DNA of 64,000 nt from Rhizomicrobium electricum (lineage in GTDB: Bacteria; Pseudomonadota; Alphaproteobacteria; Micropepsales; Micropepsaceae). The position numbers and the translations under genes were made by a program. Within the stretch, counting starts at the first letter, position 1, and every line of letters begins with the position of its first letter. Under the pieces are notes generated by a model that was not told the DNA's origin, made no database searches, and saw only the letters and a program-made list of their open reading frames with translations. The stretch lies in assembly GCF_011762045.1 (NCBI RefSeq), contig NZ_JAASQS010000003.1, forward strand, positions 434,001 to 498,000. The letters run 5' to 3'. Of this stretch, positions 11,365 to 13,040 are shown in pieces.

Positions 11365-12339
11365 TCATGCTGCTAGGCAGTGCTGAAGAAATACTAAAAC
11401 AAGATCCATCATAAGCATTGCGTCGCGCGGGGTTGCTTCGCTGAGAGATGGTTTTGCGGTACTCTTCGTGGCGCGCTCCGACGGAAAGAAGCTCTCCAAT
11501 ACATTGATGAGCGGCTCTCCAAATCTCGTAGCCGAGACTAAACCATTCTTCTTTGCTGTCCGGAAGAGTTCCTTTAGTTCGCCCTTGCCATTTTTCCCTT
11601 CGTCACCAGACCGAATCTGGAGAAATCGCTGTACCGCGCTATGTGCCTTGGTAATCACCTCCCCGAAATCGCCCGCCCGATAATCAGCAAACATCTTGCC
11701 CAAATCATCACTGACACGAGCATATTTGGGATCGGATAGAACGCCGAGCACTGGTACATAGATTTTCTCGGCAATCGTTGTGTCTTGAATGGGCGCGAAC
11801 CCGCTACGAGTTACTTGGACGTTTACGGAAAACTGGCGAAACAGGTAATTCAGCATATTTGCGAATCGGTCGAACTTCTCGAAGGCGCGCTCCACCAAAG
11901 CGTTTCGCTTTTCCGCATCCATTTCTTTTCTCGCTGCGTCGTGCTCCCAACGGCTAATGTGCATTGTCGCGAACGCGCTCAGCAGACGCAGAACAAGTTC
12001 TTCTTTATTTGATGTCGCCACGATTTCATAGAAATCCGCGTATGCGGCATTCATTCGGTCAAACTCGTTTTCGCCATAAATCCCACTCAGTGGTTTCAGT
12101 TTATGAAGTCGCTTACCGGGCAACTCTCTCAGGAAATTGCGGTTCAAATAATCGACGGCGGCGAGAACTTCACGTGAGCGAGGTTCAATCCATCCCTTGT
12201 TGTGTAGTTCTTGGAGGAACGTTTCACGCTCGGTCGTCTTGAGATCGCGCCAGCACCGGAGTGCGAGTTTCGGCTGTATCCGTTCTTCGATTTCTGGATT
12301 GCCGTCACCGTACAGGCGGAACTCTGGTACATCGCTCAT
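11365..12339 (-). CDS. Orphan protein with abortive-infection (AbiJ/HEPN)-like C-terminus
   Basis: 324 residues, function unknown. The N-terminal two thirds is a charged helical region (EIEERIQPKLALRCWRDL, GIYGENEFDRMNAAYADFYEI). The C-terminal ~110 residues (GEVITKAHSAVQRFLQI, then ELFRTAKKNGLV, ending AMLMMDLVLVFLQHCLAA) have the layout of the C-terminal region of AbiJ-like abortive-infection proteins, a helical HEPN-type fold. The RNase motif RxxxxxxH expected of active HEPN proteins is not evident. Base composition is visibly less GC-rich than all neighbours, suggesting recent transfer. The ATG at 12339 has a strong GAGGGGGTGGGA ribosome binding site; the earlier in-frame start lacks one. 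Confidence 0.6.
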   Translation of the reverse strand: MSDVPEFRLYGDGNPEIEERIQPKLALRCWRDLKTTERETFLQELHNKGWIEPRSREVLAAVDYLNRNFLRELPGKRLHKLKPLSGIYGENEFDRMNAAYADFYEIVATSNKEELVLRLLSAFATMHISRWEHDAARKEMDAEKRNALVERAFEKFDRFANMLNYLFRQFSVNVQVTRSGFAPIQDTTIAEKIYVPVLGVLSDPKYARVSDDLGKMFADYRAGDFGEVITKAHSAVQRFLQIRSGDEGKNGKGELKELFRTAKKNGLVSATRFGEPLINVLESFFPSERATKSTAKPSLSEATPRDAMLMMDLVLVFLQHCLAA

Positions 12340-12475
12340 TCCCACCCCCTCGATATTCCTGCACGAAAGCCTACAACTTTGAGACAACCTGCCAAAGACT
12401 GGAATTGGCGTACATCAGCCAAAAGCGCCTCCCGGAATGTCGGAAAGCAAGCCTTACGAAGGTGCGCACATTTTC

Positions 12476-12538
12476 ACCTCGCCCCCCGACTTCGGGGGAG
12501 AGGTCGGCGAGCGCGTCAGCGCTCGACGGGTGAGGGGG
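12476..12538. repeat. Left member of an inverted pair of structured repeats flanking the DUF559 gene
   Basis: About 63 bp. The outer part is ACCTCGCCCCC-N5-GGGGGAGAGGTCG, with a CCCCCG/CGGGGG hairpin. Then comes an internal perfect hairpin CGAGCGC-GTCA-GCGCTCG (12508-12525), and the inner end is GGGTGAGGGGG (12528-12538). The same outer and inner ends occur inverted at 12910-12978. The last codons and stop of the DUF559 gene lie inside this repeat. Confidence 0.85.
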
Positions 12539-12905
12539 CCGTCAACGCGCGCCAAACGCCTTCCAGGATGGCATCCGGCGTACGCAGGAAATCATCGTTC
12601 CAAACGCGGAGTATGCGAAAGCCGCGCGATTGCAGAAAGTCGGTTCGTTTGATGTCGTATTCGGCCTGCTGGGCATGCTGACCGCCATCCAGTTCGACGA
12701 TCAATCTTTGATCCAGGCAAACAAAGTCGGCGATGTATGGCCCCACCGGATATTGACGCTTGAACTTGTAGCCATCGAACTTGCGTCCGCGCACGGCGAA
12801 CCAGAATTTGCGTTCCGCATCGGTCGGCTCGTGGCGCATCTGCCGCGCATTCGAAATCAGGCGCTGTCCGGCGGCGCGACGGTTCTTGGTGTTCTGAGAG
12901 ACCAT
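12516..12905 (-). CDS. DUF559 endonuclease-like protein
   Basis: 129 residues of the DUF559 family, a very-short-patch/restriction-like (PD-(D/E)xK-type) nuclease fold. Seen: RHEPTDAERKFWFAVRGRKFDGYKFKRQYPVGPYIADFVC, then LIVELDGGQH. Asp60, Glu71 and Asp73 are the likely metal ligands, and RGFRILRVWNDDFL is the conserved C-terminal block. The start codon follows the inner end of the right repeat, which supplies the ribosome binding site GAGGGGGATCA. The final residues (APSPVER) and the stop are encoded by the left repeat. The molecular target of DUF559 proteins is not established. Confidence 0.88.
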   Translation of the reverse strand: MVSQNTKNRRAAGQRLISNARQMRHEPTDAERKFWFAVRGRKFDGYKFKRQYPVGPYIADFVCLDQRLIVELDGGQHAQQAEYDIKRTDFLQSRGFRILRVWNDDFLRTPDAILEGVWRALTAPSPVER

Positions 12906-12909
12906 TGAT

Positions 12910-12978
12910 CCCCCTCACCCGCCATCCGTTGCGCTTCGCGCTTCGGATGTCGACCTCTCCCCCAAGTGGGGGCGAGGT
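12910..12978. repeat. Right member of the inverted pair flanking the DUF559 gene
   Basis: About 69 bp. The inner end CCCCCTCACCC (12910-12920) and the outer part CGACCTCTCCCCC-AAGT-GGGGGCGAGGT are exact or near-exact reverse complements of the left repeat ends. The middle differs from the left copy: CATCCG-TT-GCGC-TTC-GCGC-TT-CGGATG, another hairpin with unrelated sequence. Same architecture with a different internal stem means the structure is conserved rather than the sequence. Confidence 0.85.
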
Positions 12979-13014
12979 AAGCGTAATACCTGAATGCGCC
13001 CCATACAAAAACAA

Positions 13015-13040
13015 ATGGGGACAGGCGAGCCTGTCCCCAT
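13015..13040 (-). terminator. Intrinsic terminator of the GH43 operon
   Basis: Perfect 11-bp stem ATGGGGACAGG/CCTGTCCCCAT with a 4-nt loop. On the minus strand it is followed by TTTGTTTTTG. It lies 31 bp past the GH43 stop codon. Confidence 0.9.

What the first reader, a model, noticed from the sequence alone, without database searches (positions are those of the whole stretch)
12476..12978. DUF559 nuclease gene bracketed exactly by two inverted, structured repeats: candidate selfish unit
The repeats share outer (ACCTCGCCCCC, GAGAGGTCG) and inner (GGGTGAGGGGG) blocks in opposite orientation, and both hold a C5/G5 hairpin. Their middle hairpins differ in sequence (GAGCGC/GCGCTC versus CATCCG/CGGATG) but agree in shape. 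The gene begins 4 bp past one inner end, which supplies its ribosome binding site, and it stops inside the other. Gene and repeats therefore move or evolve as one unit, as REP sequences do with RAYT transposases. If the nuclease recognises the repeat hairpins, DUF559 would be a home for a new class of repeat-linked mobilising or homing enzymes. I know of no established mechanism for this pairing.
Basis: partly seen in the sequence, partly recalled or inferred. Interest (0 to 1): 0.75.

Follow-up and report, generated by a model that had tools for sequence, protein, structure and literature searches.

The report
Nuclease genes framed by cognate triplex repeats
A small nuclease gene of the uncharacterised DUF559 family sits between two inverted copies of a folding DNA repeat, and the same gene-plus-repeat pairing recurs across many bacterial groups, each gene lineage with its own repeat type, so these nucleases probably drive the spread of a repeat family ("BoxC", the triplex motif) whose origin has been open since the 1990s.

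Summary
DUF559 gene 12516-12905(-) lies between inverted repeats, each a C/G hairpin, a second hairpin and a purine tail mirroring the first hairpin's purine arm: the layout of the E. coli BoxC / intrastrand-triplex motif, here with a hairpin in loop 2. Of 134 DUF559 loci from many bacterial groups, 105 have such inverted flanks, against 0 of 68 neighbouring genes. Repeat class follows the gene's lineage, not the genome: the nearest DUF559 relative in another genome has the same class in 85% of cases (permuted 20%), and several classes coexist in one genome. In 160 genomes of the window's phylum, triplex-motif repeats occur in 35/41 DUF559 carriers and 10/119 others. Solo repeats form inverted pairs, usually with unlike ends, and vary between orthologous sites; the gene unit is such a pair with the gene in its spacer. 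Ten of 16 examined genomes, the own one included, lack any RAYT-type transposase. Best reading: a REPtron-like selfish system built on an EDxHD (Vsr / I-Bth0305I-fold) nuclease instead of a HUH transposase. Association and co-evolution are shown; cleavage of the repeats and the copying route are inferred.

The parts
12516..12905 (-). DUF559 nuclease gene (129 aa, ATG start, TGA stop)
   Evidence: ORF; PF04480 E 2.4e-38; model matches 3hrl, I-Bth0305I and Vsr
12910..12978 (-). gene-proximal (5') repeat as a whole: two hairpins and purine tail
   Evidence: DNA fold -23.9 kcal/mol, z -6.7
12953..12978 (-). 5' repeat, outer pyrimidine/purine hairpin (ACCTCGCCCCC-ACTT-GGGGGAGAGGT)
   Evidence: sequence, fold
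12921..12952 (-). 5' repeat, middle hairpin (CATCCG/CGGATG) sitting in loop 2 of the triplex layout
   Evidence: fold
12910..12920 (-). 5' repeat, tail GGGTGAGGGGG: mirror of the purine arm, 4 bp before the ATG, likely supplies the ribosome binding site
   Evidence: sequence; mirror test over 124 loci; ribosome-binding role inferred
12476..12538 (+). distal (3') inverted repeat as a whole; contains the stop codon
   Evidence: DNA fold -23.4 kcal/mol, z -3.8
12476..12504 (+). 3' repeat, outer hairpin (ACCTCGCCCCCC-GACTTC-GGGGGAGAGGT)
   Evidence: sequence, fold
12505..12528 (+). 3' repeat, middle hairpin (GAGCGC/GCGCTC)
   Evidence: fold
12528..12538 (+). 3' repeat, tail GGGTGAGGGGG, pointing at the gene
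   Evidence: sequence

Best explanation
A selfish repeat-plus-nuclease system that works like a REPtron but with an unrelated enzyme. The autonomous unit is [repeat]-DUF559-[inverted repeat]; copies of the inverted pair without the gene are its non-autonomous derivatives. Proposed mechanism: when the repeats become single-stranded (replication, repair) each folds into hairpins, with the purine tail as a possible third strand. The EDxHD-type nuclease encoded between them recognises its own repeat class and nicks or cuts there; host repair, in which the inverted pair can fold back, then copies or re-inserts the pair, with or without the gene, at new intergenic sites. Shown: bracketing, cognate classes, mirror-image tail, inverted pairs with unlike ends, co-occurrence with DUF559, gain and loss at orthologous sites, nuclease fold with conserved catalytic-type residues. 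Inferred: recognition of the repeat, cutting, and the copying route; a hydrolytic nuclease cannot join strands by itself, so integration would need host repair.
For: 105/134 DUF559 loci have matching inverted flanks versus 0/68 neighbouring genes. Four of five DUF559 genes of the own genome are bracketed, each by its own repeat sequence. Nearest DUF559 protein in another genome has the same repeat class in 85% versus 20% permuted, P<0.0005. Tail mirrors its own hairpin arm, 0.761 versus 0.707 permuted. Repeats in 35/41 DUF559 genomes versus 10/119 others; more copies in carriers in 9 of 10 families with both states. All 52 close pairs of listed solo copies are inverted; the 353- and 429-bp gaps coincide with DUF559 genes. 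Empty site in G007 for a solo pair of G000. EDxHD homing endonuclease I-Bth0305I and Vsr are structural neighbours; E31, D60, E71, D73, H77 conserved. No Y1/RAYT gene in 10 of 16 repeat-bearing genomes. A Caulobacter DUF559 protein is required for an SOS response in cells lacking a methyltransferase (PMC12907096).
Against: No biochemical evidence that any DUF559 protein binds or cuts these repeats. The window's own repeat type is nearly single-copy (3 exact matches, 2 of them here). G033 has many repeats of the L006 type but no DUF559 gene of that class was identified in it. Ten genomes have repeats without a DUF559 hit at E<=1e-15, one with 45. No clean footprint of a whole gene unit. Whole-repeat Mantel correlation is weak (rho 0.12, P 0.04-0.06). 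The repeat classes were defined after looking at the sequences and 17 loci stayed unclassified.
Confidence: 0.68

Rival explanations
1. The repeats are older, independently spreading elements; DUF559 is a free-standing homing endonuclease that invades the spacer of repeat pairs by cutting gene-less pairs and being copied in by repair.
For: Structural relation to the homing endonuclease I-Bth0305I; gene units are repeat pairs with the gene in the spacer; most pairs lack the gene; some genomes have repeats without DUF559.
Against: Repeats are rare in genomes without DUF559 (10/119), which is not expected if they spread on their own, although dependence of DUF559 on repeats could contribute. Gene-less pairs have short spacers of varied length, so no constant insertion point for the gene is visible.
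Confidence: 0.2
2. The association is passive: the repeats serve as ribosome-binding, terminator or regulatory sequence for small genes in general, and DUF559 happens to use them.
For: The tail lies at ribosome-binding distance from the ATG and the stop codon is inside the other repeat.
Against: 0 of 68 neighbouring genes show such flanks; class-by-class pairing and genome-level co-occurrence are not explained; earlier work found no promoter or terminator activity for the E. coli motif (quoted in PMC4666352).
Confidence: 0.06
3. The repeats are ordinary REPs moved by a RAYT (HUH transposase) acting in trans; DUF559 is a passenger.
For: Inverted pairs resemble REPINs; 6 of 16 repeat-bearing genomes have a Y1 transposase match.
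Against: No Y1_Tnp match in G000, G033, G007, G087, G102, G213, G129, G153, G204 or G121, several with more than 40 repeat copies. The conserved core is a triplex-type module rather than the GTAG-plus-palindrome layout of REPs (PMC8266576).
Confidence: 0.03
4. DUF559 is a Vsr-like mismatch-repair enzyme, and the repeats mark a fragile insertion site only.
For: Vsr fold; VsrA model in Caulobacter (PMC12907096).
Against: Does not explain matched inverted flanks, cognate classes or repeat abundance in carriers. VsrA itself was not shown to be of the repeat-flanked type.
Confidence: 0.03

Closest known systems
REPtron: tnpA_REP (RAYT) with cognate REP/REPIN sequences (PMC8266576)
   Same: Gene bordered by inverted palindromic repeats; many dispersed gene-less copies, often as inverted pairs; enzyme and repeat classes are matched; several systems can coexist in one genome.
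   Different: Enzyme is an EDxHD/PD-(D/E)XK-fold hydrolase, not a HUH Y1 transposase; the repeat core is a pyrimidine-purine-purine triplex module, not the GTAG-tagged palindrome; Y1 genes are absent from many carriers.
BoxC / PIT / TM intrastrand triplex motif (PMC4666352)
   Same: Hairpin of pyrimidine and purine arms plus purine tail GGGTGAGGGG; inverted pairs with two types of second loop.
   Different: The paper links the motif to no gene and found no mobility functions near it; here it brackets DUF559 genes, exists in several sequence classes and often has a hairpin in loop 2.
EDxHD homing endonuclease I-Bth0305I (3r3p; PMC3943268)
   Same: Catalytic domain fold (Foldseek E 8e-4, TM 0.73 on the target; profile E 2.8e-4) and selfish-gene setting.
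   Different: No intron and no long DNA-binding extension (129 aa in all); flanked by its own repeats.
Vsr mismatch endonuclease and Caulobacter VsrA (PMC12907096)
   Same: Fold; a DUF559 protein that provokes DNA damage in vivo.
   Different: No methyltransferase next to the window gene; repeat pairing; mismatch repair not indicated.
MITE and miniature IS derivatives
   Same: Short inverted-ended, gene-less copies of a gene-bearing element.
   Different: No transposase of a known class; no target-site duplication seen at the one clean empty site.

Membership tests
REPtron / RAYT system | HUH Y1 transposase (PF01797) in the unit or genome | tested here: not met
   gene is PF04480; no PF01797 in G000 and 9 other repeat-bearing genomes
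REPtron / RAYT system | gene bordered by palindromic repeats in inverted orientation | tested here: met
REPtron / RAYT system | enzyme and repeat class are cognate | tested here: met
   (class level); the whole-repeat Mantel test is weak
REPtron / RAYT system | GTAG-type tag next to the palindrome | tested here: not met
   window repeats carry no GTAG; the constant tag is GGGTGAGGGGG
BoxC / intrastrand triplex motif | pyrimidine arm, purine arm and a purine third block mirroring the purine arm | tested here: met
   sequence; mirror specificity over 124 loci
BoxC / intrastrand triplex motif | short loops (1-6 nt in the ITxF search) | tested here: not met
   loop 2 of the window repeats is a 23-32 nt hairpin; BoxC-like short loops occur in many relatives
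BoxC / intrastrand triplex motif | forms a triplex in vitro | not testable with these tools
   shown for the E. coli motif in PMC4666352, not for these repeats
EDxHD nucleases | Vsr / I-Bth0305I fold with conserved acidic and histidine residues | tested here: met
Homing endonuclease | cuts alleles lacking its gene and is copied into them | not testable with these tools
   needs an enzyme and homing assay
DUF559 (PF04480) | profile match over the curated cut-off | tested here: met
   130.8 bits against 20.6

The most novel reading that the evidence does not exclude
DUF559/EDxHD nucleases are the long-missing mobilisers of the BoxC/triplex-motif repeats and of related repeats in many bacterial groups: a class of repeat-borne selfish elements that uses a hydrolytic nuclease and host repair on folded single-stranded DNA instead of a transposase.
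Probability: 0.55. Interest if true: 0.92.

Novelty: categorically new. Interest (0 to 1): 0.85.

Why it matters
BoxC-type triplex repeats are known in hundreds of bacterial genomes, E. coli K-12 included, and authors who looked reported no mobility gene near them and no origin (PMC4666352). DUF559 is a widespread family of unknown function. Linking the two gives a candidate function to the one and a candidate origin to the other, testable with a solved enzyme structure (3hrl) and a harmless laboratory strain (E. coli K-12 YcjD and BoxC). It would be a second, independent solution to the problem that RAYTs solve for REPs. Qualifier on novelty: the enzyme fold and the triplex motif are each known, and the system logic is analogous to REPtrons; it is the pairing and the enzyme class that I find in no known element. 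The literature check covered open-access full text only.

Tried and rejected
Rfam: no family near threshold. PADLOC: no convincing match. RAYT/Y1 transposase as mobiliser: absent from the own genome and nine other repeat-bearing genomes. Mantel test on whole-repeat similarity: weak, so a class test was made. Empty site of the window unit in G033: not empty but decayed; right repeat and first 12 codons remain. L005, L006 and L007 units: missing from the orthologous G033 sites, but those carry other inserts, so no clean footprint. S. meliloti L161 versus Shinella L168: unit absent, but ISRm16 is part of the difference. E. coli ycjD as a presence/absence test: genomes without a joined match carry an efflux operon after sapF, so no clean empty site. 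Azospirillum DUF559: same site in all seven plasmids found. ScmA site YGCCGGCR in the repeats: two scattered hits among nine flanks, no pattern.

Full report
What is in the window. The ORF at 12516-12905(-) encodes a 129-residue DUF559 protein. It lies exactly between two inverted repeats, 12476-12538(+) and 12978-12910(-). Each reads, from outside to gene: a C-rich/G-rich hairpin, a second hairpin whose sequence differs between the two copies, and the tail GGGTGAGGGGG. The tail ends 4 bp before the ATG on one side; the stop codon lies inside the repeat on the other. Folded as DNA, both give two hairpins and a free purine tail (z -6.7 and -3.8).

The own genome. G000 holds five DUF559 genes (a sixth match is the second half of one of them). 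Four are bracketed by inverted repeats of the same layout, each with its own sequence; the fifth, a diverged paralogue (L008), is not.

Generality. In 61 genomes of relatives and in 80 named loci of a genome collection (Alpha-, Beta-, Gamma- and Deltaproteobacteria, Nitrospirota, Planctomycetota and others) the layout recurs. Scored as similarity between 300 bp upstream and the inverted 300 bp downstream, 105 of 134 loci reach a threshold that 0 of 68 neighbouring genes reach. DUF559 paralogues distant from the window protein lack the repeats.

What the repeat is. In many of these loci the repeat is CCCTCTCCC[25 protein letters not shown], the BoxC / PIT / TM element. Holder et al. (PMC4666352) describe it as an intrastrand purine triplex motif in more than 260 genomes, 23 times in E. 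coli MG1655, and say that they never found activities providing mobility around it. The tail is the mirror image of the hairpin's purine arm, as a third strand would be. Over 124 loci the mirror relation is specific to a locus's own arm (0.761 versus 0.707 after permutation, 0 of 300). In the window and many relatives loop 2 holds a hairpin.

Cognate pairing. With repeats sorted by arm and tail into six classes, the closest DUF559 protein in another genome has the same class in 85% of 40 loci, against 20% after permutation (P<0.0005). Single genomes hold up to three classes, so the class follows the gene and not the genome. Caveats: the class patterns were written after inspection and 17 loci stayed unclassified; whole-repeat similarity gives only a weak Mantel correlation.

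Co-occurrence. In 160 genomes of the window's phylum (not named by the tool, presumably Pseudomonadota) triplex-motif matches occur in 35 of 41 genomes with DUF559 and 10 of 119 without; means 26 and 0.7 per genome. In families with both states, carriers have more copies in 9 of 10. Some DUF559 genomes without a pattern match carry a similar layout in another sequence near the gene, for example CCCCTTCAAGTTTGAAGGGG in G193 and G208. Within the window's genus the same trend holds (17/21 versus 5/16, P 0.006).

Solo copies. Of 132 listed places, 104 are in close pairs, and all 52 pairs are inverted; gaps are at most 122 bp except two of 353 and 429 bp, which hold a DUF559 gene. In 33 of 38 scored pairs the two ends differ in loop 2, as reported for E. 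coli types A and B (PMC4666352), so a pair looks like an element with a left and a right end. In G000 the class of the L006 and L007 genes is present as dozens of roughly 190-bp inverted pairs with changing but base-paired middle hairpins.

Mobility. Relative G007 has an empty site for one such pair: the stop codon of one gene runs straight into the next gene where G000 has the pair (L195 versus L227). At another site G033 has a triplex-class pair where G000 has a pair of the other class (L203 versus L234). In E. coli a tkt-ypfG site carries BoxC in some strains and a REP-like sequence in others. Gene units turn over too: three of the four units of G000 are missing from orthologous sites in its roughly 90%-identical relative G033, and the window unit is left there only as the right repeat and the first 12 codons.

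Enzyme. The AlphaFold2 model (pLDDT 84.7) matches 3hrl (NGO0050), the EDxHD homing endonuclease I-Bth0305I and, more weakly, Vsr (sequence profile E 2.8e-4 to 3r3p). E31, E71, D73 and H77 are invariant and D60 nearly so in 64 sequences. Ten of 16 examined repeat-bearing genomes, the own one included, have no Y1/RAYT match. An experimental study found a Caulobacter DUF559 protein responsible for an SOS response in cells lacking a methyltransferase (PMC12907096), in line with DNA cutting in vivo; that protein was not shown to be repeat-flanked.

Mechanism. The simplest reading is a REPtron-like system with a different engine: the nuclease acts on its own folded repeats, and host repair spreads the inverted pair with or without the gene. 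Co-evolution and dispersal are shown; recognition, cutting and copying are inferred. The main rival is that DUF559 is a homing endonuclease living in pre-existing repeat pairs; it accounts less well for the scarcity of repeats in genomes without DUF559.

Limits. Phylogenetic correction is crude (family-level comparison). The window's own repeat type is rare in its genome: three exact pattern matches, two of them here. G033 keeps many repeats of the L006 class although no DUF559 gene of that class was identified in its draft genome. No gene unit with a clean footprint was found. The literature check covers open-access papers only.

Noticed in passing
L001 1373-1568 (G000:C2 near 337169): Two copies of the window-type repeat in the same orientation about 100 bp apart with no DUF559 gene between them; the only other exact match to the window repeat pattern in the genome.
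   Followed up: partly
window 11365-12387(-); L170 3200-4215: The gene beside the unit (weak match to STM4504/CBY_0614 family) is replaced in relative G033 by a different ORF that looks like a restriction-type nuclease, so the spot next to the DUF559 unit is variable and may be an island or defence hot spot.
   Followed up: no
window 13013-13040; L170 4529-4554: Perfect 12-bp inverted repeat ATGGGGACAGGC/GCCTGTCCCCAT just outside the right repeat, conserved in G033; possibly another small palindromic element or a terminator.
   Followed up: no
L231, L232 (G033) against L195, L189 (G000): At orthologous sites G033 carries a third kind of element (TCATTCCCGGCCGA...GGCCGGGGATGAC) where G000 has DUF559-class pairs: the same intergenic spots take up different repeat families.
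   Followed up: partly
L226, L235-L239 (E. coli tkt-ypfG): BoxC in some strains and a REP/BIME-like sequence in others at the same intergenic position.
   Followed up: partly
L209 739-1399 with L192, L193, L197, L198: A repeat pair followed by about 450 bp of further sequence that is itself repeated at several loci; could be a larger composite or an old cargo.
   Followed up: no
L005 1948-2055: CTCCGCGTCTCCGCGTGAA repeat next to a DUF559 unit; near-identical 30-bp pieces occur at several places in G007, G010, G026 and G033, apparently another dispersed repeat family.
   Followed up: no
L085, L126, L142 flanks: Rhizobiales-type DUF559 flanks (CCCTCATCCGGC...CACCTTCTCCC...GGGAGAAGG) resemble, from memory, the Rhizobium RIME palindromes; not checked against the published sequence.
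   Followed up: no
L161 2957-4435 (S. meliloti Ak57): ISRm16 lies inside the distal repeat of a DUF559 unit; the whole stretch is missing at the matching site of Shinella (L168).
   Followed up: partly
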